A stretch of 64,000 bases of DNA from Patiria pectinifera (taxonomy: Eukaryota > Echinodermata > Asteroidea > Valvatida > Asterinidae), in assembly GCA_029964075.1 (NCBI GenBank), contig CM057148.1, forward strand, positions 30,745,916 through 30,809,915. The letters run 5' to 3'. The notes below the pieces were generated by a model, which saw only the letters and a program-made list of their open reading frames with translations, searched no databases and was not told where the DNA came from. Of this stretch, positions 9,201-62,158 are shown one piece after another; position 1 is the first letter of the stretch; every line of letters starts with the position of its first letter. The position numbers and the translations under genes were made by a program.

Positions 9201-10071
9201 CGCTCGAGGGATAGACTTCACCCTTGGAGTGACTAATAAGTCGTTTTCTTGAAGAATTATCCAGTGAATTTCCTTTGTACCAAATAACTCCCACTATGAT
9301 GTCACCTTCTCGGAATGATGGACATGGAATCCTGTGCCAAAGCCCGCTCTGTACATGCGCTTTACTTGTAGACAGGCCAAATGCATCATGAATAATCTCT
9401 TCTGAAATAAAAGTAACAATTAAGTGAGTGGTACATTAATGTATCCTATTTGGAAACTTTCAATTTCTTTCTCTCCAAAATCCGTTTTAAGACGAGCATA
9501 TCGTAGGAAGAGTGTCGTACTTCAGTATTCCCTCAAAAAGATACTAAAATATCCTAAAAAGCCCTTTTTTAACTTACAGCAATTCTGTGGACTCTTGGTG
9601 TCATTTGGTTTCGCTTTCAGGCTTCACCTTAATGAAATTAAGGTGAATTTACTGTTATACATGGATTTATTTAAAATAAATGGTTGAAGTCATCTGATTC
9701 ATCTCTCCTGTCATTTTTCTTTCTGGGACAAATATGAAGGCGGACCTGAAGACAAATCCTCAGTCTATAGAGAAATGGCTCCAGAAATCCATGAGAAAGA
9801 CGTTAAAAATATGGAAGATAAGGAACTGTCGGATCATCTTTTCCTATGCTTAGTTAACATTTTGAGTGCATTCCGAATGTTAAATGAAAGGTTTATCAAA
9901 CAAGCAGATTGGCACGCCCAACCCTTCATGGAATGGGCGATAAAACTTACCAGTGCCTAGAGGACATATGTCATAGGCAGCAGACAGGCTGCTCGCGAAG
10001 ATGACAGTTGCTATCAACACATACATAATAACACTTGTGGTATCTGTAGGAATATAATGTATGTTTCATTA
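3272..10071 (-). CDS. Predicted membrane-anchored Ig-NACHT receptor (7 exons, 1442 aa)
   Basis: Exons on the minus strand: 10071-9951, 9401-9066, 8564-8217, 7620-7297, 7087-6725, 6442-6284 and 5949-3272. All borders are GT/AG. Every intron is phase 1, and the lengths sum to 1443 codons with the stop. Residues 1-40 form a signal peptide (core VCVLIATVIFASSLSA). Four exons (41-152, 153-268, 269-376, 377-497) each give one Ig-like domain with paired Cys, a core Trp (VIWYKG, VVYWST, VQWFKV, LIWSFG) and a second-Cys motif (DSDEGKYLC, ARFWC, DSGNYSC, LRFWC). The next exon holds a transmembrane helix (about 504-528), basic stop-transfer residues and an ITIM-like VVYHRI at Tyr544. The last exon holds a NACHT NTPase: Walker A GRSGCGKT (638-645), Walker B ILVDGCND (about 717-724) and a sensor-like VISARHSR. 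The C terminus is leucine-rich, like degenerate LRRs. I see no death-fold domain. An extracellular ligand sensor fused to an NLR-type ATPase is the likely role. The ligand is unknown. The start codon is the least certain part. Confidence 0.82.
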
Positions 10072-13192: not shown

Positions 13193-13369
13193 TTAAGAAG
13201 CAGAGTCACTCAATTCCTTTATATTTTGGTTTGGATGGATCACCGATGGATTTTTTGGCAAATTTGAAGGATCATCAAATAAATTCCCTTTGTAACAAAT
13301 AACTCCCACTATGATGTCACCTTCGCGGTGCGATGTACATGGAACCCTGTGCCAAAGCCCGCTCTGTAC
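13193..13369 (-). pseudogene. Ig-NACHT paralogue fragment: first part of Ig domain 1
   Basis: Translation on the minus strand matches the first half of Ig exon 1 of the intact gene (VQSGLWHRVPC then EGDIIVGVICYKGN against VQSGLWHRIPC and EGDIIVGVIWYKGN). The core Ig tryptophan is Cys here, and similarity stops after about 57 codons. The fragment ends exactly at the left border of the 17.9-kb transposon (9-bp duplication GCTCTGTAC at 13361-13369). The rest of this exon continues beyond the transposon at 31311. Confidence 0.85.
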
Positions 13370-13590
13370 TAGTCTTGGTTCCAAGACCTTCGTGGAATAT
13401 TTTTTTCTCCCGGCGCGCGAAAATTATATTGCCCTAGTACAGACGCAGCTAGCTAGCGCAGCCTAGCCTAGCCGGCCCGCAATGAAAAACTGTGATCGAT
13501 TCTGCAATGTATTCGATACTTATTCACTGTGGTTATTCAACGAGTATCGATTCTAGCGCAAACGATTCTGTACTTCCACGAAGGTCTTGG
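13370..13590. repeat. Left terminal module of the 17.9-kb transposon
   Basis: The terminal 18 bp is itself nearly palindromic (GTCTTGG-TT-CCAAGAC). Adjoining it, CCAAGACCTTCGTGGAA (13381-13397) returns as its perfect 17-bp inverse at 13574-13590. These are probably transposase binding or pairing sites; that function is inferred. Confidence 0.75.
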
Positions 13591-13830
13591 ATATCTTGTA
13601 AAGTAATGTTTAACTTTTTCTTTGTTTTTTGGCGAATCTCCCTCGTTTTTCCGAGGGATCCAATCAGCGATCGCGTTGGAACGTTTTGATGAATTATTCA
13701 TATTCCAGAAATGTATACATTGAGCGTGAACCACCATTGAGCTCCCGATGTACATGTACTGTGTGTGTGACGTGCGTGCATATTTTCTGGAAAGTTTTGA
13801 CGGCCGATTCGGCGCGGGCGGACGGGGAAC

Positions 13831-16800
13831 ATGGCATCAACTCCCGGCCCCCTGGGGCGGTCGTGCGTTATTTGCGGGAAGCAGTTAATAACATGCAGGA
13901 ACTATGTTTCGTTGAAATCTAAAGATACATATTCTCTAGTTCAGGAGGTTTCACTCATCACAAATTTACAAGTCAAAGAGGTAGAAACGGCCTATTTGTG
14001 CGACGTTTGCCACCGCGCCGTACAGAAAATAGTAGCCATTTCAACAACCAGAGAATTCCTCAGGGGCAGATACTTGAAGTCACAAACCTCGTCAACGGCT
14101 CTTTCCCCACAGTCCAAGAAGAGACCTGCGTTTACCAGTCCAGGAACGCCATCATCAAAGGTGAGATTTGGGCTACCATTAACGGACTGGGGAACCTCAT
14201 CATTTTGGTTATATCATCGAGATTCCGCGCAATATAAATGCAGTAAAAATGTAGTTGAGCCTAGCCCCCTAGTTTTCGGCCCATTTCCATTCAAAAACGA
14301 GTACCGCCGGGTAGGCCTACGCAAATGAGTTTCAGTTTTACAGTGACTCGTGCAGGCTTGATTAGTCTTTTCTATTTCAATCAGTATGTCGCCTCCTCAT
14401 AAAAGTATTTGTCATGTTGTGAATATGTATTCCCCGAAGTACTACTACTAGTACTAGTATTACTAATACTAGTAACACTACTACTAGGTCTAGGTTGTGT
14501 ATTCAAAAAAATCAAAGTTATTTCAAACTTGTCTCTTTTTTTCAAGGCCATGGAAATAATTAATTTTGGAAGTGTGAGGATAAGTTGTTATTTTTTTGTA
14601 CACAGCTATATTATTAATATAATGTCATGGTCTCACTGTTTTGTACAGCACCAAATCAAACGAGTACTACATGAACTACCCAGTCCATCACCAACAAAGA
14701 CATCAAGTCCATACACTAGTGCTTCGCGGACTCCAGAAGTTGAGGTAAAAATGTGTGTTTGACCCCTTTTCCCCTTGTACATTCCCACCCCACTGTTGAG
14801 GATTCTGCTCACCAACTTAATTACTTTCCACTAGCAAATTTTACAAGACAGATATGTGTTTGCTTAGAATTTTATGTAGGTAAAAACTTGGACAGCCTTT
14901 TTTTTTAATATTGACAGAAAGTTGTCATTACATTAAGTGTATTTGCTTTTTTATTCTTTTATATCCTAAGTAAAAACAAAGGCAATTTGCTGTACATTTT
15001 AGGATGTCGCACCGTACTATTATTATGTTCCAAATATTACGCAAGTAAGGCCTAACATAAAATTGATTCCTGTCTCTTTATTGCACAAATTGTGTCCACA
15101 CTTAGGGCCTTAGGTATTGTTTTCAATGACCCCTGCAATTTCTTAAGTACAGAGCGAGTCCTCTATATTTGTGTACACATGATCATTAAGTACTCAGGAA
15201 TGTAATAAAAAATGAAACAAAACATCTTGCTTTGCTGTACCCGCCATGTCCCCCTCAAATCCCAAATTTAAAGTCAAAATTGTACCCCATTAGTGTGGAA
15301 GTGCCCATGTACTAGTCTTTAATTCAAACCATCGGAAAAAAAAAATGAAAAATCACAGGCCAATATTTTCACTTCACTCCCCGCCCTCCTCCACCCCCCC
15401 CCCAAAAAAAAACTACTAGAAATATTTTAGCTGAATTTTTTTTCTGTGGTTTTAGAACACATTCCAACCCCCCCCCAAATAGTTGAGGAATATTAAATGA
15501 TTCTTTAGTTCATTTGATAAATAAATATTCACTATTTGTAATTTGCACATAATGATTATAATAATACTTTAAATTTATATTGTGCTGTTTCCACTATTGA
15601 AAATGATCAAAAGCTCATAACAAATATTAAACTAAAACAAAAAGCTATTTGATAATTGAAAGAAAAAGCAGTTCTTTGAACTGTGTCATTTTTCCCCAAT
15701 AAAATTGTATTGATTTATCTTTTTTTAACACCTTCAGAGAAGATGGGAACTATTCAATCAAGAAAATAGACCCCCAGGGCCAGGACAGCCTCGTCAGGGA
15801 TCCCCAGTCACATCTCACAGTCTCACTCCACAACTAGTAGAGGTAAGACTGTGGAACAACAGTGCATGTGCATGTACATCTATGCAGTACCCATATTTTA
15901 ATTGCAGACAATTAGTGTTTAGGAATAATAATCTATTGTAATCAGGGGTATGGATGAACACATCATATATATTGATGCCAGTTTTATACTTGTGTTCAAA
16001 CTGTGACAGCCCCTGATTACATTTTTGATATTTCTTTTAATATTGATGTCCAATGATTTAAAACAAAATAAATGAAATACCTGTACATACGTTTAAGGTT
16101 TATACAAAATATTTTCAATTACTTTACACACAATAGTGATTAGATCAACTAAGGAGGGCAAGTGGGAAGGCTAGTACTTGTCCAGTCTGTGTTGGACCAT
16201 AATTAGTTTTCTACACGGTCCCCAATTAATTGGAATTAAGTAATGTTAATGTAATTATTATAAAGGTTACATGAACTCTGCATCAATTGTGTAATTATTA
16301 AGACAAGTAGTCATATGAATGTAATGTTTTGCTACCATGTCATGGTGGCATTTGTAGTATTTGTTTGCCAACTATAATAAATCCTTGATTGTTGACATTC
16401 AACAAAAAGGAAAACCAGGAATAGTCAGGAAAATTCAATGGTCATCTACCCCCCCCCCAAAAAAAAGGCTTTAAAAGCTCGTTTCATCAGGAGAATTCAT
16501 AAAGTAATATGTACTACTAGTATTCAGAGTTTTCAAATTAGAATAGCTTTCAACAAATTCTAGATGAAGCTATACAGTAAATGAACTCCATAAAAGCAAA
16601 ATGATATCAGTATCTTAGTGTAAATTTCTGGCTTTTCGTCACAAAAAAACCAATACATTGTTAACATTTTTTTCTTCAGGTCGTTTTTCACCATGGCAAA
16701 AGAGTGGAGAAAAAGAAGGTTCCATTAAAGTGGGTACCTGCTCTTCAAGCCATCACTGACAACGATGAAAGCAGTTTGATTAAGGATGTGATGAAACTGA

Positions 16801-19800
16801 GCGGAGTACAGGGACATTTCTCCAAGTTAGTAGCTGAAGAATGTGAACATGTTTGTTCACCAGCAAGCAATTCCTGTTTCAGAAATTCTTCTCTTCAAGG
16901 CTTGCAAAATGTCAGTTTTGAAGAACAACTGCAAGAATTGCAACAACGTGCCCCTTATCTTCTGCAGATTCTACAAACTGCAGCTACTGGAAAACACGCT
17001 TCTCGAAACAAACTGAAAACGCTTAAAGCTCTAACACCAGGCATAATGACTGCTGCAGGAATACTTTTGAACTGTCGCTCACAAGAAATGAATTGCCACC
17101 AAGTATTGACTGGATTGACAGTTTTGGAGGGAGGCTGCAATAAACTTGCATTTCAGAGGTTACAAGCACGGAACATAAGTTCAGCGTACCAAACAATCAT
17201 TAAGAAACAGATGATGTTTGGCAAGGGCTTTGACAACAAAGTTAAAGAGTGGGGAGCTGAAATATGGCAAGCCAACAACATTGATTTTGACAAGGGTGTG
17301 CCTGCAGAAGTGCCCATCCCAGATTTGCCCATGGTCTCAGATGTGCCTGCAGAAGTGCCCACCCCAGATTTGCCCATGGTCTCAGATGTGCCTGCAGAAG
17401 TGACCATCCCAGATTTGCCCATGGTCTCAGATGTGCCTGCAGAAGTGCCCATCCCAGATTTGCCCATGGTCTCAGATGTGCCTACAGAAGTGCCCACCCC
17501 AGATTTGCCCATGGTCTCAGATGTGCCTACAGAAGTACCCATCCCAGATTTGCCCATGGTCTCAGATATGCCTACAGAAGTGCCCATCCCAGATTTGCCC
17601 ATGGTCTCAGATGTGCCTGCAGAAGTGCCCATCCCAGATTTGCCCATGGTCTCAGATGTGCCTACAGAAGTGCCCATCCCAGATTTGCCCATGGTCTCAG
17701 ATGTGCCTGCAGAAGTGCCCATCCCAGATTTGCCCATGGTCTCAGATGTGCCTGCAGAAGTGCCCATCCCAGATTTGCCCATGGTCTCAGATGTGCCTAC
17801 AGAAGTGCCCATCCCAGATTTGCCCATGGTCTCAGATGTGCCTGCAGAAGTGCCCATCCCAGATTTGCCCATGGTCTCAGATGTGCCTACAGAAGTGCCC
17901 ATCCCAGATTTGCCCATGGTCTTAGATGTACCTGCAGAAGTGCCTATCCCAGATTTGCCCATGGTCTCAGATGTGCCTACAGAAGTGCCTATCCCAGATT
18001 TGCCCATGGTTTCAGATGTGCCTACAGAAGTGCCCATCCCAGATTTGCCCATGGTCTCAGATGTGCCTACAGAAGTGCCCATCCCAGATTTGCCCATGGT
18101 CTCAGATGTGCCTACAGAAGTGCCCATCCCAGATTTGCCCATGGTCTCAGATGTGCCTACAGAAGTGCCTATCCCAGATTTGCCCATGGCTTCAGATTTA
18201 TTTGCAGAAGTTCTTGTAGATGTGCCCGCAGTTAATTCGTCGCCCAGATCTTTTCAACTTGTAATGGATAACGTGGACATGAATGTGCGGGCAAGACATA
18301 CATCTCGAAAGCACCATGGCTGTGATTATCATATGGCAAACATTATGGCTGTCCGTGATCGTGTTGACTCATCGCATCTGTCCAATGATAAACCACAAAT
18401 AAATATTGGTGACATTGATTTGGGCACATTCCTCCCATCTATGACTGACAATGAAAGGTTGAAAAATAACTGGATGGTGCTTATTGGGCACATTATTGCT
18501 GATCACCTTCCGGCACTTCAGTGGATTCAACGTGAACTGCCTAATGAGATACCCCACCGCCACATGGCAGAAGCTAAACAAAAGTCTGAAGTGGTATGTA
18601 AAGTAAATTGGTTCACAGTTAATTTGCTGCTCACAATTGACCGCTTTACATGTGCCTGCAGAAGTGCCCACCCTAGATTTGTCCATGATCTCAGATTTGC
18701 CTGTGGAAATGCCCATCCCAGTTTAATTTTTGTATCAATTTGTTACGATGGTCGGCCACCAGTTGTGAATGTGCTAAAAACTTATCTTGAGAGGTATAAT
18801 GAATTCTTAAAAAGATTCAAAAGATAATTTTCAAAAAGAATTTTAATACTTTGGAGTCCCTCTGAAAATAATTGCAAGAGTAGGCTTTATTGCCAAAAAT
18901 GCATAAAATTTGTCCTTGAAAAGGAGTAATCCAAATTCATGCTTAACTTTATACCCATCCATGCGAACAGGTTTGTGGTTTAGGTGCATTAACTAAATGT
19001 GTTCACTAACTACCTCATTTGTTGTTCTCTTATGTTACACTCAGGTCAATCTTGGTGTGATAATGGAAAACGAAAACACCTCCGAAGGGATCTTGAAAAT
19101 CATGAAACGCATGCATGAATATGTTCCTGGCCATGGAACAGACCGTCTGTGCAGGGTTATAAGTGCTGGTGATCTCCTCACCTGTGAGCGTGAGAGCAGT
19201 TGTCAGGAAGAGCGGCAGAACTCTACATCACCCAGTGCATGTTTGGAAGGACTTATGCCTGTTATCGCCGACTTTCATGCTTATGCAAATTTTCTGGAGG
19301 TCAGTGAACAGTGAAATTAAACTTGCCAAAAAAATTGTTTCCCAAAATCCCTTTTCCCCTTTATTCCCTGAAAGACTCCTAGTTTACATATTCCACTTTA
19401 CTTTCTCTTTTGCACAGGTTGTCTGGAAGCAGCTGTATGATACATCTTCCAGTGCAGACAAGGGGACCCTGTACAGTGCCAGAAATTTCTTGAATGCCCG
19501 ACATGTCACCAAAGACCCCATGCAGAACATCAATGCAGCATCAGATTTGCTGGAAACCTACACAAAGTCTTTAATTGTTGCAGCTGCAATGAACTTCTTT
19601 GGGATGGACAGTGCACAGGATGAGCCCAAGAAAAACAGTTTCAACTTCCAGATACACCAGGACAGGAAAGTGTATGTCTTGAACACTTTGTCTGAAATTA
19701 TTGACAAGTATGTGATCCCTGCAAATGACGAACTGAGTACCAAGGCTCCCAAAATCCAGTGTAATCAGTGCACCAAATCGTACAAAACAAAGACTGGGCT

Positions 19801-20557
19801 AAAAAGACATCTCAAGAATAAGCACAGCTTTGTACAAGCCACCAGACCAGTGACATCACATCAGTCATCAGATGATGGTTTGCAGGATGCTGTGTTCAAC
19901 TATGCTCGATGTGCAGCAAGTTTGGGCCTACTCGCTTTGAATTTCACTGATGCAAGACGAATGGGAGATGGGGAACGCCTTATGAGAATGTACAAGTGCT
20001 TCTTACTTCATTACAAGGCCGCAGGAAAACCAAACTACAGCTTCCAGACCTTGCGACTCCTAGCACAGGTTCAGTGCTTCCTCCCCGAAAAGATGTCGTA
20101 CAGCCTCGTCTGGAATCGCTTTGTGAACACAAAAGAAAGAGTCAAAGGCAACATCGAAGTGGACAGGGAAATGGAGCACCACAATAGAACATTCAAGACT
20201 CAGTGCAAAGCACTCCATGGGAAAATAAGTCCAAAAAGTGTTGACAGGGTTAGTCACTCTGCTCAAGTTGTTCATGAGATGCTTTGTCATGTTGATGAGC
20301 AGACATCTGTCAAGCGACAATCAGGGAAACATATGACACCAAGTAATAAGAAGGATGTTGTAGCCCTGGCGTTGGAAATGCATCGAAGCAAAATGTACGA
20401 GCATCATCAAGGGAGGCATTATCATGCATTTCCAGGTTACCCTTCTTCTGTGCTCATGGGTCTAAATGTTCAAGATCTGTACCTGTGGATACAGACCACA
20501 CTTAAATCCTTGAAACGACACCACATTTTTAGAAATGAGCAGCATCATAATTTGTAA
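13831..20557 (+). CDS. DUF6589-like transposase of the 17.9-kb element (6 exons, 1279 aa)
   Basis: Exons: 13831-14160, 14649-14744, 15738-15842, 16680-18593, 19045-19299 and 19418-20557. All introns are GT/AG and phase 0, and the exons sum to 1280 codons with the stop. The N terminus has two CxxC pairs (CVICGK, then YLCDVCHRAV), probably a zinc-binding domain, followed by a Ser/Pro/Thr-rich linker over exons 2-3. Exon 4 has a helical domain (LQELQQRAPYLLQIL, ILLNCRSQEMN), then twenty 15-residue acidic-proline repeats, then LVMDNVDMNVRARH. Exon 5 has SAGDLLTCER and VIADFHAYANFLE. Exon 6 continues with VVWKQLYDTSSSADKGTLYSA and contains a C2H2 finger (CNQCTKSYKTKTGLKRHLKNKH spacing C-x2-C-x12-H-x4-H). 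The order of the DN, GDLLT and DFH blocks is typical of DUF6589 proteins as I know them. The conserved Asp residues are candidate DDE-type catalytic acids, which is an inference. The start was chosen for the ATGGCATCA context and the downstream zinc finger. Confidence 0.8.
17298..18197 (+). repeat. In-frame 45-bp minisatellite (20 copies) in the transposase exon
   Basis: Twenty tandem copies of 45 bp encode VP(A/T)EVPIPDLPMVSD with only a few substitutions (I/T, S/L, V/M). The unit length is a multiple of three, so the frame is kept. Both other frames and the opposite strand also stay open across the array, giving long spurious ORFs. Confidence 0.95.
18652..18721 (+). repeat. Stray 1.6 copies of the 45-bp minisatellite inside the next intron
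   Basis: The intron after exon 4 (18594-19044) contains GTGCCTGCAGAAGTGCCCAC, then a diverged GATTTGTCCATGATCTCAGA and a partial second unit (GTGGAAATGCCCATCCCA). It is the same unit as the coding array, about 455 bp downstream of it. Confidence 0.85.
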
Positions 20558-23500
20558 AGTGGAATGCTTAAGCTTGATAATTATAAAGGATTCATGCAAC
20601 AAATATCCATGCCTTATAACTGTGAGGCTCTCCATTTGGTTTTTGGTTTCTGTAATAGTGCATTGTTTTCAATATTCAAAATGACCTTATTTATTGAGGG
20701 GGCTGTTTCTGAACAAATTGTGAGCCGCAAATTTCATTCATTTGAGTAGTTTGTGCATAAAACATACTTATTGACAGGATCTCCAGCACCAAATCAACTA
20801 AATCCCAGCCCCCAAACTAAGAACTCAGCCCCTCCCTTGCATGTGCCCCATAAACACATCGAAATCATGGCGAAGTTTGGTGGTGAGGTTCTGGAGCAAG
20901 AACATGATTATTATCTGATTCGACAACTAATTTTGAAATGTGTACTGAAAAATTATGTTTACAAATAACCACAGAAAAAAATAATTTACAAATACTTCTA
21001 GATTCACACAAAACATTTTATTTCACTACATGGCTTTGCACTCACAGTATTCCACTAGTATGTGAGCATGACAATTTTTTTATATGTACAAGTGTACCAA
21101 AAACATTCAATGAAATGCAAATAATTTAACAAGTGTTGACCGCTATGATGTGGGATATGCTGTTTAACAACCCAGTGCCAATACAGTACGTTACACCCCA
21201 GGCAAAGCAGAGGATGCTACATGTATGCATCACAAGGAGAGTTAAAATGACATCCCACATAGCAGCGGTCACCTATGTATTGGTTTGTATATCATGCAAA
21301 TAAGTCCAACCCTAAATGGTTGTAACATCCTATGCCATATTTACATAAATTAAATAACTGCAGGTTTTCTTTCCCGACAGGGAACTGAGCGTTACACTTC
21401 TCATTCTCGAACTAGTGCGTGTATACGCCCAACGCACATTGTATATGAGGTTAACCGTTGTACATGTACAAATGTATAAGCATTTTTACAAACTGGACAC
21501 AGGACCATTCTCAACCAATGAAATTACAGAATCCAAGCACATGATATACATGTAACAAATGGGTTTAAAATATGACCCTTTGATGAAGCTACTGAGTAAC
21601 TTTGTACATGTAGGTTATAACCAAACACACATTGGCAATTGAATGGAATGCATGTATGTGAGCTGTAAGGGAATGAAAAAGTACCCCAAAATCATCCTCT
21701 CTTTTGATTAAACATAAATAAAATACACGTATGGGGCCTTTTTTTTGGGGGGGGGGGGGGTTCCAAACCTGACAAACATGGACTCTATGAAGAGTTTCCT
21801 GCAGATATGGCGATGTATGCATGTACATTGTAAATAACAATTGTTATACCTCTTCTGTCTTGAATACTGTATTTTCATTGGCCTAGACTGATCGCATGTT
21901 TAATTTACGTATGTGTACGTACACGTTCCACACATAAAACACAGCGAACTAGCAGACAATCAGCTGTTTTGAGCACGCAACATGCACGTGAGTTGATGTT
22001 AGATTGTCATGATTGTTGTGTTTACTGCTGTTTGTTTTCGTGATTATGTTCATCAAATTCCAAAAACATCCAAGACATAGGTCACCAATTGTTAATTCTA
22101 CATTATAACTTTCTTTTACCAACAATGGCCTCAAATTTCAATGTTTGAAACCATTAGAAAATCCCCCTGTGCCTTGCAGGGTAAACGTAAAACAAATCTG
22201 AGTTATGTAACTTCAGTAAATGTAACTCCCTGGTAATTATTATTTAAGATTAAAATGTAAATTTACTAAATTATTATGAAATACTTTACTGGACTGTTAG
22301 TGAACGACAGTCTAAAGTACATGTACATGTACATATATCCTGTAAAACTATTGACACCTGGAGTGCTATAATTCAAAAATAAAAAAGTGGTTATAAATTT
22401 TGTATCAAATTCCAACGCTGTTCAGCCAACCAGCTTTTGAAAAATAGGTGGTTTTTTTTCAAACACTGCCCCATTTTATCAGTGTAATTAAATTTAATTG
22501 TATAGCCTAGCCATTTGTTTTGTTAATGATTTAGGTTGAATTGGACCTGTCCTGATTAAGATTGTACATGTATGTGACTCTAAATCTTAAATCCAATTAA
22601 TATCTTCCTTAACATAATGATAATGATTTGACCTTCCACAAGAAGGGATGAGTCAAACTGTTGAAACAGAATCTTTAAAAAATACACACTGTACATGTAC
22701 TACTTGGCCCATTCTTCAGAAGTGTAACTTGACCATGATATTCTAATTACATGTATCCTTTGGATAATCCAAAGTCCCTAAACTGACACTTTTTTACTCT
22801 CCATATTGTAGGTCAATCCCGGCATTAAGTAGATTTCTGCAGTTTGTTTTTCTTTAAAAAAAAAAGATATAAAAACTTTGAAAAGATCATCTCCCATAAC
22901 TGTGTAAGTGCAAGACAAATTGATTTATTAAATGTACACAATACAGTACGTGTACTTTAAATGCAAGTCATTTCAAATTCAATTAAATTGTAGGCTTATA
23001 TCATTACCAGAGATTTCTCAATATCACACATTTATGTGAAGGAATTGGAGCCCATTTTTTTATAGATAAATTGGAAAGATTTGTTTGCATTTTAGGGAAA
23101 TACTAATTACTCAATCTGGTTCATAACATAATTGTGGAGAGATGGAGTGCTCCTCTGAAACAAATTTATATGTAGTTATGATCCTCTGTAAAACATATCC
23201 CAAGTGACAAGCATTTACAACCATTTTTGATTCTTAAAAAAATGGTTAAACATTACAAATGTATTTCCTATTAAATGTCAACGCTTACATGTCTAACTTA
23301 TTACAAAAATGTAAATAATACAAAGTTTGAGCAAGTACATCAACATGTATACTAGTATTGTACCTTTAATAAAGGTGAAGGTAAAAGCTAAATTTTTCTA
23401 TTGGTGCTGCAGTTTTGATTTCAAATTTGTTCAAATCTCAAATCTCTTGCGACTTTTAATGTGCCTCTAAAATCATTTGATTTGTAAATTGTATCGAGTA

Positions 23501-23640
23501 GAAACAAGAAAAGTGTGTCTTCCAACACAAATGCCCCTCCACCCCAACCGTCCCATAACTTGACACACTGCCACCCTCTTGATATGATAATTTATACGAG
23601 CTATCTGGCTGTGGGACTATTCAGTTACATAACCATTGAT
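20558..23640. other. Non-coding centre of the transposon, left part
   Basis: AT-rich sequence after the transposase stop with no supported exon. A hairpin occupies about 21135-21273 (GACCGCTATGATGTGGGA and its near inverse TCCCACATAGCAGCGGTC), probably a nested MITE. Near 21740-21763 there is a short poly-T/poly-G tract. Several ACATGTACATGT runs occur. Confidence 0.5.
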
Positions 23641-25760
23641 TTGTTTAGTTAACACTGATCTTGACCTGTGGCACCCCCCTCCCTCTGAATTACAACTGGT
23701 TTCACAGGGTACACCAAGTCTAAATTGAGTTATCGTGATGACAAGTGTTTCTTTTGTTTTAGCCATATTGACCTTGACCTTTGACTGGTAACCCCAAAAT
23801 TCAATAGGCTTCTTGGGCGTACCCCTAGCAAGCCACCTGTCAAGTTTTATGACAATCGATCAAGTCTTCCTTGAGTTATCGTGATGACAAGCATTTCTTT
23901 TGTTTAAGCCATATTGATCTTGACCTTTGACCTGTAACCCCCAAATTCAATAGGCTTCTTGGGGGTTCCACTAGCAAGCCATCTTTAAAGTTTCATGACA
24001 ATACATCAATGCTAATTTGAGTAATCGTGATGACAAGCATTTCTTTTGTTTACGTTATCATAATGCATTTCTTTTGTTTTAGCCATATTGACCTTGACCT
24101 TTGACTGGTAACCCCCAAATTCAATAGGCTTCTTGGGCGTACCCCTAGCAAGCCACCTGTCAAGTTTTATGACAATCCATCAAGTCTTCCTTGAGTTATC
24201 GTGATGACAAGCATTTCTTTTGTTTTAGCCATATTGACCTTGACCTTTGACCTATAACCCCCAAATTCAATAGGCTTCTTGGGAGTTCCACTAGCAAGCC
24301 ACCCGTCAAGTTTTATGACAATCCATCAAGTCTTCCTTGAGTTATCGTGATGACAAGCATTTCTTTTGTTTTAGCCATATTGACCTTGACCTTTGACCTG
24401 TATCCCCCAAATTCAATAGGCTTCTCGAGGGTTCCACTAGCAAGCCATCTTTAAAGTTTCATGACAATACATCAATGCTAATTTGAGTTATCGTGATGAC
24501 AAGCATTTCTTTTGTTTTAGCCATATGGACCTTGACCTTTGACCTGTAACCCCCAAATTCAATAGGCTTCTTGGGGATTCCACTAGCAAGCCATCTTTAA
24601 AGTTTCATGACAATACATCAATGCTAATTTGAGTAATCGTGATGACAAGCATTTCTTTTGTTTACGTTATCATAATGCATTTCTTTTGTTTTAGCCATAT
24701 TGACCTTGACCTTTGACTAGTTAGCAACAAATTCGAGAGGGTTCTGAGTCGTAATCCTAGTAAGCCCCCTGTCAAGTTTTATGACAATCCATCAAGTCTT
24801 CCTTGAGTTATCGTGATGACAAGCATTTCTTTTGTTTTAGCCATATTGACCTTGACCTTTGACCTATAACCCCCAAATTCAATAGGCTTATTGGGGGTTC
24901 CACTAGCAAGCCATCTTTAAAGTTTCATGACAATACATCAATGCTAATTTGAGTTATCGTGATGACAAGCATTTCTTTTGTTTTAGCCATATTGACCTTG
25001 ACCTTTGACCTGTAACCCCCAAATTCAATAGGCTTCTTGGGGATTCCACTAGCAAGCCATCTTTAAAGTTTCATGACAATACATCAATGCTAATTTGAGT
25101 AATCGTGATGACAAGCATTTCTTTTGTTTACGTTATCATAATGCATTTCTTTTGTTTTAGCCATATTGACCTTGACCTTTGACTAGTAACCCCCAAATTC
25201 AATAGGCTTCTTGGGCGTACCCCTAGCAAGCCACCTGTCAAGTTTTATGACAATCCATCAAGTCTTCCTTGAGTTATCGTGATGACAAGCATTTCTTTTG
25301 TTTTAGCCATATTGACCTTGACCTTTGACCTATAACCCCCAAATTCAATAGGCTTATTGGGGGTTCCACTAGCAAGCCATCTTTAAAGTTTCATGACAAT
25401 ACATCAATGCTAATTTGAGTTATCGTGATGACAAGCATTTCTTTTGTTTTAGCCATATTGACCTTGACCTTTGACCAGTAACCCCCAAATTCAATAGGCT
25501 TCTTTGGGAACCCACTAGTAAACTACCTGCTAAGTTTCGTGACAATCCATCAAGTTTATCTTGAGTTATCTTGATGAAAGCATTTTCTTTTGTTTTAGCC
25601 ATATTGACCTTGACCTTGTACATGTGGCCCTCAAATTCAATAGGCTTCTTGGGGAATCCACTATCAAACTAAATGCCAAGTTTCATGACAATCCATCAAG
25701 TCTATCTTGAGCTATCGTGATGAAAGCAAAAGTGTGACATACACACACACACACACACAC
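23640..25760. repeat. About 148-bp satellite array with TTGACCTTGACCTTTGAC cores, ending in (AC)n
   Basis: About thirteen monomers, spaced mostly 146-170 bp, share GTGATGACAAGCATTTCTTT, AGCCATATTGACC, TTGACCTTTGACC, CCCCCAAATTCAATAGGCTT and CATGACAAT. Two monomer types alternate: one with CACCTGTCAAGTTTTATGAC and one with CATCTTTAAAGTTTCATGAC. Some carry an extra TACGTTATCATAATGCATTT insert (about 24050, 24660 and 25130), which suggests higher-order units. An AC dinucleotide tract closes the array at about 25739-25760. Confidence 0.85.
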
Positions 25761-25764
25761 TCCA

Positions 25765-26470
25765 AAATTTGTATCCTTGTGGAGACATTTCTTTGTTCCC
25801 GTGTAGTAAAGTGTTCAATTTTGAAAGTGAATTTTCAAAATGCTCTTATTTTAACCAGAATAAGTTTCCTGGGCTGAAATTTGGAATTAATATCCCTTTT
25901 CTAAAACTCTTCCATCTGCGACAAATAAACACAGCTTGGAAATTCCTAGTTTTTGAGTAAAACCCATATATCTATTTCGTGAAAACCTTGTGGAGACCTA
26001 TTCATCTATAGAAATTGCCCTGTGGAGACCTTTACAATGTTTTGTTCACTATTGTGTGTGAGTCTCCACAAGGCAGCGAATTTGTGGTCACACACACACC
26101 CACACACACACCCACACACGGAAGGACATGACAGAAACAGTATGCCCTTCGGCTTCGCCGGGGCATAAAAATATATGACTATGAACAATTGAAAACATTC
26201 AGGATAGATTCAAATGACAAGGATCTGCACATGTACATGTATGTCAGCTATACATGTATAAATCTCAATAAAGGTCAGTCATTGCAAGGTAGAAAAGACA
26301 CGGACTGAGAAACATTTCCAATTTTGTTAGGAAATACTTTTTTCTTGACTGTCCATAGAACACATATTGTACACATCTGCTAAATTGTCGTCAGGATACT
26401 TTATTTAACTGACATACAGAGCTTCGTAATTTGATTAGTGGAACCCACATCGTTTGACATTCATTATTTC
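25765..26470. other. Short CCTTGTGGAGAC repeats and CA-rich tract
   Basis: CTTGTGGAGAC recurs at about 25778, 25988 and 26022, and inverted (GTCTCCACAAGG) near 26061. A CACACACCC tract lies at about 26088-26118. No exon is supported. Confidence 0.4.
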
Positions 26471-26478
26471 CCCCGTAA

Positions 26479-26831
26479 GGCCAAAAAAAAAAAGTCTGCA
26501 GTTTCTGGTATGAAGCTTGCCTCAAAAGTGGTGCGACGACGTGGCTATTTTTTTATTTTTTTTTATTCAAATGTCGGCTGATGACTGCAAATGGTGCAAG
26601 ACTAAATTTAGTGCAAAATATTTGGGAGTCCAGAGAGGCCACTACTTGATCGTAACCCAATCTAAAAACATGTTAAAATTGTGCAGCAGCAGGATTCCAG
26701 TCAAACCAGTGAGTTTGGCAATTTGAAACATCATCTTACATTGAAAAAACAAACTTTTTCATTTTGCAAAAGCGAATGGCTAAGGGCGACGCGTACGCAT
26801 ACCAGAAACCAGAGACTTTTTTTTTTTGGCC
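26479..26831. mobile_element. PIF/Harbinger-like MITE (353 bp)
   Basis: The ends start with GGCCAAAAAAAAAAA. The inverted repeats extend about 35 bp, through GTCTGCAGTTTCTGGTATG on the left and its near inverse CATACCAGAAACCAGAGAC on the right. TAA flanks both sides (26476-26478 and 26832-26834), matching the 3-bp TWA duplication of the PIF/Harbinger group. It is nested inside the 17.9-kb element. Confidence 0.75.
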
Positions 26832-26893
26832 TAAGCTGGTGCTCATAAAGTCCCATTTGCCTTTTGGGAATGGGATTTACTGTTCATTGAATC

Positions 26894-27085
26894 AAATGAC
26901 AAGGATCTACATGTACATGTATGTCAGTTATATAAAAACCACAAGTACTGAGTCTCTTTAAATTGTGAAATGGCAGGATTATTACTGTGCTCGGTAAAAT
27001 CTGAACTCTTCCATTTTTCAAAGTCCAGATTTTACCTTGCGATAATATACCTCCCATTCCACCCTGAACGACTCAATATTTGTAT
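26894..27085. mobile_element. Small hairpin MITE next to the helicase stop
   Basis: The unit starts CAAATGACAAGGATCTACAT and contains the hairpin GGTAAAATCTGAAC...AAGTCCAGATTTTACC. It has an inverted relative at 33195-33395, and a third partial start lies near 26214. It is nested just downstream of the helicase stop codon. Confidence 0.6.
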
Positions 27086-27186
27086 AACATTCTTTCCGAT
27101 ATATGTACTCTGCTATGCAAACTTAATAACATACATTGTACACTTAATTATATGTACAGTTTTACTGCAGTGAATTCTGAATCCAC

Positions 27187-30100
27187 TCAGTCACTTTCAT
27201 CATCAGTGTGTTCTACGTGTGGTTCAGCATATTCATCAACAGCTTCATAACATTCATCATCACTAGAGTCGGTATCAGAAAGACCTTGGGTGACACAAGC
27301 ACTGCCAGTGGGTGATGAATTGATTAGGCTGCTGTTAAGAATAGCCCAAACACGTTCTCTTATTTCATTACTACTGAACACATATCTTTTACAGAAGTGT
27401 GAATAAGAAAATGCAAATGAAAGCTCATTTAAGATTTTGGCAATTGTGCTGGCTGACAGGCCACATGCTACATCAGGTCCAGTATATACATGTTTCAATG
27501 TACCAACCAGTTCTTCTCTCAGTTCTTGAAGACCATTTTGGACTGACGTGTATTCTTCTGGTGATACACAACGAGTCGGTACTTTGGAACCGACTGGTGA
27601 TGAGGGCACATGTAGCTTCTTTTTGAAGTTGTTCTCCACATATCTTGGAGGAGCCAAACAAGAAAGCTCTCCACAGCAGCAAGAAGCTGAACAGATATCG
27701 CAACAGTTATGTGCAACAATTTTGTGAGTTTGTGAGCCTGCTACTGAGAATGCTGCCTGGATTACTTCTCTTCTACATTGCTGTGTGGTAGTGAAGTCCT
27801 TCATCTGTTCCCCAAGGGGCGTTCTTCGGTAACCAGGGTACTGGATGAGAAGTGCTAAACTCTCTTGCCCATCACGGCCACCTCTACCACTCAGTTGAAT
27901 GTAATCATCTATGTCACTTGGTGTTCCAAAGATGACTACGTTGTGAACTCCTTTCACATCAACTCCTAGTCCAAAAGCTATTGTTGCAAATAACAACCGC
28001 ACAACTCCCTCAGGCTCCGAAAAGCTGAGAAGAATGTCCTCTTGAATATCACTCTCTGTATTAGTGTGATACATGTTGAAAAACTGGTGATGACTTGTTG
28101 GAAGCCGGGAGTAGAAAATGGAGTAAAGTTCAGCACACGTTTTCCTTGACTGACAGTACACAATGATACGCTCCATCTTTTCTTTTTTCCTGAACACTTC
28201 ATCACAAAGCCAGTCAAAGACTTCCTCCACATCTTTGAGCTTTGTGTTCAGGACAACATGCTTGATGTTGTCACGGATGGGACTCTGTTGAACAAGCACT
28301 GCATTTCTCATTTGCAGTGCATCAGCAACAGCCATTCGAGTGGAAAAACTTGCTGTCGCTGTCATGGCAGCAAACACAGTGCCAGGCTTCAATAGAGTTC
28401 GAAGTTGCCCAACTTCTCCATACAGCTTGCGGAAAGCACATGCCTTTTTTGATGATTGGCCCCTGTAACAAGATGAGGAACAAAAAAAAACCCAACACCA
28501 GCTTAGAATTATCTAGCACAGTATATTTACAAGATCAGGCACGGAGCCAGAAGGGGGGGGGGGAATAAACCCAGCTGTCTCCCCCCCCCCCCCCAATTAG
28601 TTTTTCATAGTACAAATTCATTAATTAAAGAAAATCTTAACCCCCCCCCCCATCTTAACTGGCATCCTCATGCAAGACCAAATTACTTGGAAAAACCATC
28701 CTCGAGCCTGCCTGTGGGCGACGGAGTGAGTGAGTGAGTGTAACACCCCCCCCCCCCCAGACACCAAAAAAATGATACTGGTAATCATGTCCATCTGTGC
28801 ACCAAATGCGTACAGAGCCGTACAGTTAGGGTACATGTATTTGTACACTTTCTGTAAGGCCAAAAAAATAAATATTCGGTCTCTGGTCAGACCAAAGTTC
28901 CAGAATTGGCACAGCCACGCGGCTTTTTTTTTTTTTTTTTTTTTTTTTTTCTTCAAGCTTGGATTGTACAGACAAGGTGTGGTACTATTTTGCTTTTTTG
29001 GTGTCCTCATGTACATTGGTCTCCTCCATAATTTGCCTTGGTGCTTTCGATCATTTGCCTTGGTGCAATTTCCCATTCCTTGGTGCTCTTTGGTACAAAA
29101 AAATGAGGAGGTGCGGAAATAGAGGGCGCTGTTGGAGCTACCGCAGAACATTTTGGAAAAAAAAAGAAAGATCGACGCGCATGCTTAAAATCGACGCACG
29201 GGCTTTTTTTTGTGGCCTAATATATATGTACATGGAGTATTAAAAGTGATCGGATTTGAACAGCGCTCCCATTGAAAGTATGGTACGAGTATGGTTTGGG
29301 ATTGCAAATCATTTGCCCAAGACTGAGCATTAAAGGTTTCAATATTTTCCCTGCAAAATCTAACCCCACTTGTGTGGCCTCTGTATTGCTGCGCTGTACG
29401 TTAGGCCACAAGTCTGGTTTCCCAATCTACTGTGAGGAGTTAGGTGCGAAACTTGCCCTTGAGGACTCCAGAAAGATGTCCAAATTTCTCTGAAAAATTG
29501 AAAAAAGATTACCTTATATTCCCGGAGGGCAAAAGATAAAGCATCACAGAATACAATCGTATGCAGTGGTGTGTGAACAAAAAATGCCCCAAAAAGGTGC
29601 GCCAGGCTTTGGACTAAACTCCCGTAGGTTGGAAAACCAGGTGTGTGGCCGAACATACAGCGCAGCAATACCGAGGCCACAGAAGTGGGGCTACATGTAT
29701 GCAAAATCTGAATGTCGGACACTTCGCCCCATTTCCACGTTGCCCCATGTCACTTCGCCCCTAACCACTTCGCCCCTAACCACTTCGCCCCATCCCCACA
29801 TCGCCCCATCCCCACTTCGCCCCATTCCCACTTCGCCCCATCCCCACTTCGCCCCATCCCCACTTCGCCCCAGCCGTTACATGTAAAAAGTAAAAAAAAA
29901 AATCTCATCTATTTTATTGGCTTAAAAACAATTCCAACAGATTCACTAATTGCTAACCAACGGAGAGAATTCTTTTTTTTTTTGGCCTAAAAGATCCAAC
30001 TTTGTTCCCAACCCGGCTATACCAACCCGTCTCCCACTTATCTGAGAACGACAATACCTTTGACATCCTAATTTCACTCGTGGAGGAACCAATCTACATG

Positions 30101-31019
30101 GGGTGAAGTGGGGATGGGGCGAAGTGGGGATGGGGCAAAGTGGGGATGGGGCGAAGCAGGGATGGGGCGATGTGGGGTTGGGGCGAAGTGGGGATGGGGC
30201 GAAGTGGTTAGGGGCGACGTGGAAATGGGGCGAAGCGTTAAGCGTCCGACACCCCAAAATTAGTACATATATTGTTGTCACTTTCTGATGATGGCGGATA
30301 CATGTAGGTCAATGCAGGAAAAAATTAGGGACATGCATATAATTCTTGGCAGGTCAACTGAAATTGGAAAGAAATAAAACGGAAAGATAAAAATAAAATA
30401 CTCACCACTTTGTGACACAATGAGTCTCGTCAATAAACAGGCCGCATACTCGATTGTAAACCGAGTCCAGTTGCAGGAACTCCCGTCCCTTAGGGCTGAA
30501 GAGGGCCTCCGGGCTTACAAACAAAAAGGAGTACTGGCCTGCAGCAGCATCGTCGATGTCTTGGTCAGTGAATTCCCCTATTACGATGGTGGAATCTATC
30601 CCCAATGTTTTAAGTCGTTCAGCTTGGTCCAAGGCCAATGATTTGAGAGGCACAATTACTATCGCGAGAGATTTGAAGGTGAAGTTGTTCATAAAATCAA
30701 AACAGAGCGGTACAGACTGAAAAATTAAGCTTTTACCGGAGCCGGTGGGTAAACAAACGAAGACGTCCTTGCCACCTAGTACAGCATCTATAGCTTCTGA
30801 CTGCTTCGGTTTCAAATTCTTCACGTTTAGCTTATCACAGGCATACTTTTTTTCGTCTTCGAATCGCTCGGTGTCAGTAGTAACACACACACTGGCACTG
30901 GCAGCCATTTGCACGATGTGTTTGACCATGTTTGACCTTACGTACCCTGACCCGTTAATATATTCAGGCCATCCATATCGCTGATTGGTCCTAGGAAAGT
31001 CTGCGGAGATAATTACCAT
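27187..31019 (-). CDS. RecQ-like DNA helicase carried by the transposon (2 exons, up to 629 aa)
   Basis: Exon 1 is 31019-30406 and exon 2 is 28462-27187. The GT/AG junction splits a Trp codon and keeps the frame. In order: KPKQSEAI (Q-like motif), LPTGSGKS (motif I, Walker A), VIVPLKSLALDQ (Ia), DETHC (motif II), MTATAS (III), IIVYCQSRKTCAEL (IV), FATIAFGLGVDVKGV (V) and QLSGRGGRDG (VI, arginine finger). A Cys-rich block follows (CRREV, then CCDICSASCCCGELSC) that fits the RecQ C-terminal zinc domain. The tail is acidic. The protein should unwind DNA with ATP. Its location inside the element, convergent with the transposase, suggests a role in transposition or in replicating the excised DNA (inference). 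Three starts are possible: 31019, 30929 or 30908; the last (MAASAS) is attractive. The 1.9-kb intron is packed with MITEs. Confidence 0.85.
28858..29217. mobile_element. Second PIF/Harbinger-like MITE (360 bp)
   Basis: GGCCAAAAAAATAAA at the left and TTTTTTTTGTGGCC at the right are flanked by TAA on both sides (28855-28857 and 29218-29220). The end structure is the same as that of the MITE at 26479-26831, but the interior differs and has a long poly-T. It lies in the helicase intron. Confidence 0.65.
29361..29695. repeat. Inverted-repeat element in the helicase intron
   Basis: The left arm has CCCCACTTGTGTGGCCTC and TATTGCTGCGCTGTACGTT (from 29361). It returns inverted at 29622-29695 (AACATACAGCGCAGCAATA, GAGGCCACAGAAGTGGGG). 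The arms are about 70 bp with an unrelated centre. Probably a foldback MITE. Confidence 0.65.
29713..30251. repeat. Foldback element whose arms are a 16-bp minisatellite
   Basis: The outer ends TGTCGGAC and GTCCGACA are inverted. The left arm (about 29720-29877) is a tandem array around ACTTCGCCCCATCCCC. The right arm (about 30098-30240) is the same array in reverse (GGGGATGGGGCGAAGT). The single-copy centre is about 220 bp. It lies in the helicase intron. Confidence 0.8.
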
Positions 31020-31049
31020 AAACTGGCCACGCCCTCAAAAACAAAATAT

Positions 31050-31310
31050 CCAAGACGTTACTTCTGTAATGTACCGCGTATAATTAATCGTCCGCGATCG
31101 ATATGCGCGCTGTGGTCCTGTGAAGTGCGCCCTCTGTTGATTGAAAACAATTGTTTTACAAAAGTATTCATTAGCGATCGATATGCGCGCTGTGGTCCTG
31201 TGAAGTGCGCCCTCTGTTGATTGAAAACAATTGTTTTACAAAAGTATTCATTAGTATGATTACACACGTACACAAACAAAGCAGATAGTAACGTCTTGGA
31301 ACCAAGACTA
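31050..31310. repeat. Right terminal module of the 17.9-kb transposon
   Basis: CCAAGACGTTACT at 31050-31062 is the perfect inverse of AGTAACGTCTTGG at 31287-31299, beside the terminal 18 bp. The layout mirrors the left end, but the arm sequence beyond CCAAGAC is different. It encloses an 80-bp tandem duplication. Confidence 0.75.
31094..31253. repeat. Perfect 80-bp tandem duplication
   Basis: Two identical 80-bp copies (31094-31173 and 31174-31253), starting GCGATCGATATGCGCGCTGT. They lie between the helicase start and the right end of the transposon. Identity of the copies implies a recent duplication, possibly of regulatory or binding sites. Confidence 0.9.
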
Positions 31311-31880
31311 GCTCTGTACATGTGCTGTACTTGTAGACTGGCCAAATACATCATGAATAGCGGAAAGGGTCACGTGCTCCATCATACAGATTAATGCCTC
31401 TAGAATCCATGAGAATGGCTACCATTACAATGTTAAACAAAATACTAGTTCACGAATACAATATTTTCTTCATCTATGCTTATTCGACAATGCGAATGTT
31501 AAATGAAATGTCTATTAAGCAAGCTCATTGCCATGACCGATCCTTCATGGAATGGGCTATATAACTTACCAGCGCCTAGAGGACATGTCATAAGCAGCAG
31601 ACAGGCTGCTTGCGAAGATGGCAGTTGCTAATAACACATACATCATCTCAGATATCTATGAGGATATACTGCCTGTTTCATCAGCGATCCCCGGTGTCTA
31701 AAACTTGTTTCTTTTGAACAATGGTTCCTCTCCAGCACGCCTATAATACTGCCTGTATAGTCTGTCTTTCCAACCGTTTATTTGTTATGGCGTCAAGCAT
31801 CGACCATCCATCACGCACACGTACAAATAATCTGTGGGTTGTGACAGTTCAAAGTACACCAAACATCTATACTAAAACAC
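31311..31880 (-). pseudogene. Ig-NACHT paralogue fragment: start of Ig domain 1, intron 1, signal-peptide exon and 5' flank
   Basis: Minus-strand sequence right of the transposon continues the exon broken at 13369 (CATGATGTATTTGGCC against CATGATGCATTTGGCC in the intact gene). The signal-peptide exon copy at 31643-31570 reads MYVLLATAIFASSLSAAYD and keeps its GTAAGT donor. It lacks two bases of the intact gene just before that donor, so the frame is off. The acceptor before Ig exon 1 is not conserved. Upstream similarity to the intact gene's flank (for example GGTTCAAAGTACACC against CAGTTCAAAGTACACC) runs to about 31880. A dead copy. Confidence 0.8.
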
Positions 31881-61389: not shown

Positions 61390-61582
61390 GTCATTTATTT
61401 GTGTTTTGTAGCAAATAATTTTATCTGCTTGAGGGCTGGAGTCAGGTTGGAGTATTTTGTTGACTTACCAAGAACTTCCAGGAAGATTTCTACTTGTCTA
61501 TTAAGAGTATGTGTTATGACGCAACAAAGGTACTTCCCTTCATCAAAATCGCTGACACCTTTAATCACGAGGCTGAAACCTG

Positions 61583-61932
<350 letters not shown>

Positions 61933-62009
61933 GCCGAAGCTGAACCAGAATCCTCCGTTTGAAATACGGCCTTGATGATGATTACCAACTGTAATCGCTC
62001 TTTTCCCAC

Positions 62010-62158
62010 TTCCGCCATGGGCATGCACGCCTCGAACTGGCAACTTTACACAATATATAACCGGTTCAGTGATTCCCGTATTGGGGTTCAGATCACTGAA
62101 CCGGCCCTTTTTATTTTGTAAAGTTGCCAGATCGAGGTAAACTTGCATGCCCAATGAC
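62010..62158. repeat. Hairpin MITE
   Basis: GGGCATGCACGCCTCGAACTGGCAACTTTACA and ACCGGTTCAGTGAT return inverted as ATCACTGAACCGG and TGTAAAGTTGCCAG...GCATGCCC. Arms are about 60 bp. It lies inside the third Ig-NACHT fragment. Confidence 0.7.

What the first reader, a model, noticed from the sequence alone, without database searches (positions are those of the whole stretch)
13370..31310. Complete 17.9-kb transposon with transposase and helicase, borders fixed by a paralogous empty site
It has perfect 18-bp inverted ends and a perfect 9-bp duplication, GCTCTGTAC, and sits in the middle of an Ig exon. The uninterrupted version of the same exon lies at 9401-9066 in this very window and shows the 9 bp once. 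Both internal genes are open. DNA transposons of this size coding for a RecQ-like helicase as well as a DUF6589-like transposase are rare. It may be a new member of the helicase-bearing Academ group or a separate lineage.
Basis: partly seen in the sequence, partly recalled or inferred. Interest (0 to 1): 0.92.

Follow-up and report, generated by a model that had tools for sequence, protein, structure and literature searches.

The report
Helicase-carrying cut-and-paste transposon (AcademH type)
An animal genome carries a complete 18-kilobase jumping gene that brings its own cutting enzyme and its own DNA-unwinding enzyme; it is a good specimen of a kind already described, with relatives and short passenger copies elsewhere in the same genome.

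Summary
Window 13370-31310 (17,941 bp) has perfect 18-bp inverted ends and a perfect 9-bp target duplication, and an uninterrupted paralogous site at 9249-9394 shows the 9 bp once. Inside, an open six-exon DUF6589 transposase gene (1,279 aa) faces an open two-exon RecQ-like helicase gene (599 aa). The same genome holds a second full-length but broken copy, 19,214 bp, with its own 9-bp duplication, short derivatives with the same ends, and diverged relatives: 28 of 47 DUF6589 loci lie within 15 kb of a match to this helicase, 26 of them convergent. A related family (41% identity) makes 9-bp duplications at both copies examined. XPG searches hit neither the element nor the neighbourhood of any DUF6589 locus. 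Helicase, 9-bp duplication and lack of XPG fit AcademH, for which 9-10 bp duplications are in print. No tree against named Academ sequences was possible; that DUF6589 is the Academ transposase is recalled. Verdict: real and complete, most likely a new AcademH family; the gene pair is not rare in this genome.

The parts
13370..31310 (.). whole transposon, 17,941 bp
   Evidence: TIR, TSD and empty site
13361..13369 (.). left copy of the 9-bp target site duplication GCTCTGTAC
31311..31319 (.). right copy of the 9-bp target site duplication
13370..13387 (+). left 18-bp terminal inverted repeat TAGTCTTGGTTCCAAGAC, itself containing the palindrome TCTTGG-TT-CCAAGA
31293..31310 (-). right 18-bp terminal inverted repeat, identical
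13584..13594 (+). subterminal motif GTCTTGGATAT, left end
   Evidence: only two occurrences in the window, one near each end, in inverted orientation; absent from the 362-bp short copy, so not needed for mobility
31046..31056 (-). subterminal motif GTCTTGGATAT, right end
13831..14160 (+). transposase exon 1, Cys-rich N-terminus (weak CXXC..CXXC match)
14649..14744 (+). transposase exon 2
15738..15842 (+). transposase exon 3
16680..18593 (+). transposase exon 4, with start of the DUF6589 domain
17297..18197 (+). in-frame tandem array, 45 bp x 20 copies, 96% matches (15-aa unit DVPAEVPIPDLPMVS) inside exon 4
   Evidence: the second full copy has a shorter array
19045..19299 (+). transposase exon 5, with invariant D858 (GD motif)
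19418..20557 (+). transposase exon 6, rest of DUF6589 with a C2H2-like insert and invariant D1078, D1149, E1153
30406..30929 (-). helicase exon 1, motifs I (TGSGKS) to II (DETH)
27187..28462 (-). helicase exon 2, motifs III to VI and Cys cluster
23507..26167 (.). segment with 146-bp tandem repeats, present here and absent from the second full copy
31094..31254 (.). perfect tandem duplication of 80 bp near the right end
9249..9394 (.). paralogous uninterrupted target (empty site), not part of the element

Best explanation
It is an autonomous cut-and-paste DNA transposon of the AcademH type. Shown: exact ends, 9-bp target duplication, empty site, two open convergent genes, other copies with the same ends, related families with the same gene pair. 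Inferred: the DUF6589 protein is a DDD/E transposase that binds the palindromic 18-bp ends, cuts the element out and inserts it through a 9-bp staggered cut; the RecQ-like helicase opens or remodels the DNA at the ends, during strand transfer or during repair of the staggered gaps; and the same proteins move the short copies, for which about 211 bp of the left and 249 bp of the right end suffice.
For: TIR, TSD and empty site. DUF6589 matched over profile positions 12-410 of 410, E 4.4e-40. Helicase: best solved relatives are RecQ (1oyw, E 7e-39) and BLM (E 1.2e-37). Second full-length copy with perfect TIR and its own TSD GTCTCAAAG. Of 11 distinct sites with both ends visible, 7 have a perfect 9-bp TSD, 2 have 8 of 9, and 2 have the repeat displaced by 1-3 extra bases. 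The TIR pattern occurs 36 times in the genome, the reversed control 0 times. 28 of 47 DUF6589 loci have a helicase match within 15 kb, 26 convergent. A second family has 9-bp TSDs at both copies examined; the second one was predicted from its right flank before the left flank was read. Exon 6 against the 69%-identical family: dN 0.20, dS 1.89, so the protein was kept under selection. Published AcademH TSD length is 9 or 10 bp (PMC10045372, passages). No XPG_I or XPG_N match in the element at E 0.001.
Against: No named Academ sequence could be compared; the identity DUF6589 = Academ transposase is recalled, and a word search found no paper in the library with that domain name. The splice model has no transcript behind it. 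19 of 47 DUF6589 loci and 28 of 53 helicase-match loci have no partner within 15 kb, though the lists are lower bounds and some helicase matches are probably host RecQ genes. The first catalytic aspartate (D707) was assigned by eye, outside the alignment. Two of 11 sites do not show a clean 9-bp TSD. A helicase role in transposition is not shown by anything here.
Confidence: 0.87

Rival explanations
1. A separate superfamily: a DUF6589 transposon that took up a RecQ helicase independently of AcademH, similar by convergence.
For: KolobokH shows that DNA transposons of another superfamily also carry a RecQ helicase, and Kolobok-1_CCri carries one on the complementary strand (PMC9587614 passages).
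Against: The 9-bp duplication, the helicase and the lack of XPG all match what is in print for AcademH.
Confidence: 0.09
2. KolobokH or KDZ (Zisupton) element.
For: KolobokH encodes a RecQ helicase (passage).
Against: Kolobok duplicates TTAA, 4 bp, with 5'-RR termini; Zisupton duplicates 8 bp (PMC9587614 and PMC12730594 passages). Here 9 bp, no TTAA, terminus 5'-TA. Pfam returned DUF6589 for the transposase and no other transposase family at E 0.05.
Confidence: 0.01
3. A composite: a transposon into which a host RecQ-like gene has recently been carried as a passenger.
For: The helicase is of RecQ type, as host genes are.
Against: The pair recurs at 26 loci in the same convergent arrangement. 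Scores of transposase and helicase fall off together over 19 paired loci (Spearman 0.85; loci are not independent, so its p-value should not be used). The partner is therefore old.
Confidence: 0.03

Closest known systems
AcademH (Academ superfamily; Kojima 2020, Mobile DNA 11:15, not held, known to me from reference lists and from passages in later papers)
   Same: helicase beside the transposase, 9-bp duplication (9 or 10 bp in print), no XPG nuclease found
   Different: Nothing that I could test differs. Length 17.9 kb, the 45-bp repeat array in the transposase and the convergent order could not be compared with published families.
AcademX (Academ superfamily)
   Same: presumably a related transposase (recalled)
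   Different: AcademX makes 3-4 bp duplications and goes with a nuclease (passage); here 9 bp and no XPG match
KolobokH
   Same: RecQ helicase carried by a DNA transposon (passage)
   Different: TTAA duplication and 5'-RR termini in Kolobok; different transposase family here
Zisupton / KDZ
   Same: large eukaryotic DNA transposon
   Different: 8-bp duplication for Zisupton (passage); here 9 bp

Membership tests
AcademH | transposase of the Academ type | tested here: inconclusive
   Full-length DUF6589 match, E 4.4e-40; the link DUF6589-Academ is recalled and no Academ sequence was in reach (one search found 0 papers with the domain name)
AcademH | helicase encoded in the element | tested here: met
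   599-aa RecQ-like helicase, open, opposite strand
AcademH | 9 or 10 bp target site duplication | tested here: met
   9 bp at the window copy and the second full copy; 7 perfect and 2 with one mismatch of 11 sites; 9 bp at both copies of a related family
AcademH | no XPG nuclease | tested here: met
   XPG_I 6 and XPG_N 7 genome-wide matches, none in the element; nearest XPG_I match to any DUF6589 locus 219 kb
AcademH | phylogenetic placement inside the AcademH clade | not testable with these tools
   no named Academ or AcademH protein in any collection here
AcademX | XPG nuclease and 3-4 bp duplication | tested here: not met
   published lengths
KolobokH | TTAA target duplication | tested here: not met
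   definition
Zisupton (KDZ) | 8-bp target duplication | tested here: not met
   definition
Helitron | no inverted ends and no target duplication (recalled) | tested here: not met

The most novel reading that the evidence does not exclude
Transposase and RecQ-like helicase form an old, co-inherited two-part machine that has split into many families within one animal genome with the convergent order kept; the helicase, not the transposase alone, may be what sets or permits the long 9-bp stagger. A side branch (C10) has lost the helicase, gained a PHD-like insert and become a tandem gene array under purifying selection, that is, a host gene family recruited from this transposon.
Probability: 0.2. 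Interest if true: 0.6.

Novelty: new member of a known kind. Interest (0 to 1): 0.36.

Why it matters
It is a complete element with an empty site, a second full copy, short derivatives that narrow down the required ends, and diverged sister families in one assembly. That makes it a good substrate for testing why a cut-and-paste transposon carries a RecQ-like helicase and whether the helicase bears on the 9-bp duplication, a link suggested in print (passage) and, as far as I know from the passages seen, not tested.

Tried and rejected
Relatives in viral contigs: none confirmed. Further genes between the two: 10 of the 18 ORFs of 60 aa or more lying wholly in 20558-27187 were scanned and gave 0 Pfam matches at E 0.1; the other 8 were not scanned. 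Single-strand folding of the left 110 bp: no better than shuffles (z -0.23), so no support for a special hairpin. Selection within families: window against its second copy, and sister copies against each other, differ too little to say. The comparison of L052 with L053 and of exon 6 with L047 and L049, and the L047, L049, L052 and L054 rows, used the wrong strand and are discarded; one search replaces them. The first XPG and PDB results did not point to any other family.

Rows dropped or unseen: one search gave 44 matches and one search gave 25, of which 20 each were read as loci; the left-end matches to positions 190-336 only were not followed. Four places show one end only (C16, C10:22.9 Mb, C13, C5) and are not in the count of 11 sites; the several C1, two C17 and two C22 places share a duplication and were counted once each. 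Of the 36 TIR pattern hits those not among the read loci were not examined.
Full report
Observation. The ends, duplication and empty site are as described. The element is 13370-31310, 17,941 bp; its 18-bp ends are identical; GCTCTGTAC flanks it on both sides. The joined flanks run without a gap through 9249-9394, which has the 9 bp once. Nothing else in the window combines 14-bp perfect inverted ends with a perfect flanking 9-bp repeat, and 20 Markov resamplings gave none. One correction: homology of the interrupted Ig exon to its paralog stops at 13264, and a match to the missing half lies at 61392-61587, so the target exon copy was probably already incomplete.

Genes. The plus-strand gene can be read as six exons with GT-AG junctions, all in phase, 1,279 aa; the minus-strand gene as two exons, 599 aa. 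I built both models by eye and have no transcript. The first protein matches DUF6589 over 12-410 of 410 positions, E 4.4e-40, with a C2H2-like stretch below its curated cut-off. Exon 4 holds twenty 45-bp repeats; the array is shorter in the second copy, and a partial unit lies in intron 4 (self-type matches at element 5281-5355). The second protein has DEAD and Helicase_C domains and is closest among solved structures to RecQ (1oyw, E 7e-39) and BLM (E 1.2e-37); RecQ_Zn_bind is below its cut-off.

Catalytic residues. In an alignment with eight closer and eight more distant relatives from the same genome, D858, D1078, D1149 and E1153 of the window protein are invariant in the rows that have letters there (7 of 7 closer and 8 of 8 distant for D858; 9 of 9, the window protein included, and 8 of 8 for the others). 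D707, in the motif DN, looks like the first catalytic aspartate by eye, but lies outside that alignment. D707, D858 and E1153 are my guess for the triad; this is inference.

Other copies. A second full copy lies at G000:C7:19047620-19066833, minus strand, 19,214 bp, ends identical, duplication GTCTCAAAG (the ends recur). It is about 97% identical over the long aligned stretches, lacks 23507-26167 of the window copy and carries a 4.4-kb insertion in transposase exon 4. Its exon 6 has an in-frame TAG and is split over frames, and one search reports one TGA in its helicase exon 2, although the 402 codons aligned held no stop. It therefore looks dead, while the window copy is open. A 1,583-bp internally deleted copy lies on C6, and short copies of 256-660 bp have the same ends. 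The 362-bp copy is the left 211 bp joined to about the right 249 bp, less one 80-bp repeat.

Target duplications. Of 11 distinct sites where both ends are visible, 7 have a perfect 9-bp duplication (window, C7, C19, C22, C14, C17, C1), 2 match at 8 of 9 (C3, C10) and 2 show the repeat displaced by 1-3 extra bases (C6, C18). The TIR plus three bases occurs 36 times exactly in the 613.5-Mb genome and the reversed control 0 times.

Relatives. The exon 6 protein gave 38 matches in the genome, PF20231 65 and the helicase exon 2 protein 59; all are lower bounds. Merged, there are 47 DUF6589 loci and 53 helicase-match loci; 28 of the 47 have a helicase match within 15 kb and 26 of those 28 are convergent. 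19 of 47 and 28 of 53 have no partner. By hand, chance proximity would give about 0.1 pairs. Two of the 28 (C18:15.14 Mb, C7:12.59 Mb) are over 11 kb apart, and the window and its own second copy are among the 26. Scores of the two proteins fall together over 19 pairs (Spearman 0.85); the loci are not independent. Exon 6 differs from the 69%-identical family with dN 0.20 and dS 1.89, which speaks for selection on the protein, dS being near saturation.

A second family. Two copies on C7, 41% identical to the window protein, are 14,491 and 11,505 bp long, begin with TAG, and have duplications CTTATATGG and AGATATAGA, 9 bp each; one has a 121-bp perfect TIR. The CTTATATGG duplication was written down as a prediction before its left flank was compared.

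XPG. XPG_I gave 6 matches and XPG_N 7 in the genome, none inside the element; the nearest XPG_I match to a DUF6589 locus is 219 kb away. I saw no sign of an AcademX-type element.

Placement. A later paper states that AcademH generates 9 or 10 bp duplications and AcademX 3 or 4 bp, and suggests a link to the helicase and the nuclease (PMC10045372, passages). Kolobok duplicates TTAA, KolobokH carries a RecQ helicase (PMC9587614, passages), and Zisupton duplicates 8 bp (PMC12730594, passages). The AcademH paper itself is not held. On traits the element fits AcademH and not the others. That DUF6589 is the Academ transposase is recalled; a word search for the domain name found no paper.

Mechanism. 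Shown: mobility in the past, exact ends, 9-bp duplications, gene pair. Inferred: a DDD/E transposase cutting at the TA-ended palindromic termini and inserting with a 9-base stagger; a RecQ-like helicase acting on the ends or at the repair step; short copies moved in trans. Folding of the left end gives no support for a special hairpin (z -0.23). The subterminal motif GTCTTGGATAT sits once near each end, but the 362-bp copy lacks it, so it is not required.

Verdict. A real, complete transposon with open genes, most likely a new AcademH family. The kind is known and the gene pair is common in this genome. The interest lies in the completeness of the material for testing the helicase's role.

Noticed in passing
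G000:C10:11334095-11432875 (L070-L075): Six long open DUF6589 frames (1,091-1,256 aa) in a cluster, with a PHD-like insert (PHD E 0.0027, below cut-off, one frame scanned) and no match to this helicase within 15 kb. Pairwise dN/dS over about 700 codons is 0.34-0.50 in 15 of 15 pairs. Candidate domesticated, helicase-free branch.
   Followed up: partly
window 3275-9435, minus strand: ORFs with Ig V-set (E 2.3e-7; a second at 1.4e-5 just under cut-off), a hydrophobic TM-like stretch (by eye) and a 900-aa NACHT ORF (E 2.2e-11) in a row: possible Ig-transmembrane-NACHT receptor gene.
   Followed up: partly
window 17297-18197 and 18650-18724: 45-bp in-frame repeat array in transposase exon 4, different in length between the two full copies, with a partial unit inside intron 4.
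   Followed up: partly
G000:C7, second full copy, exon 4 (L042): 4.4-kb insertion starting TGTAG and ending CTACA, with TTAA beside it on both sides, inside the transposase exon; its kind was not determined.
   Followed up: no
G000:C6:5982527-5982791 and C6:6268285-6268549: Same 18-bp TIR with a match to element positions 204-336 but not 1-203: probably a further related short family.
   Followed up: no
G000:C13:18217561-18258079: Five XPG_N matches in a row in open frames of 722-727 aa (one with an in-frame TAG); no DUF6589 locus on C13.
   Followed up: no
window 61395-62045: Long AT microsatellite beside an Ig exon fragment that matches the 3' part of the 9066-9401 exon.
   Followed up: no
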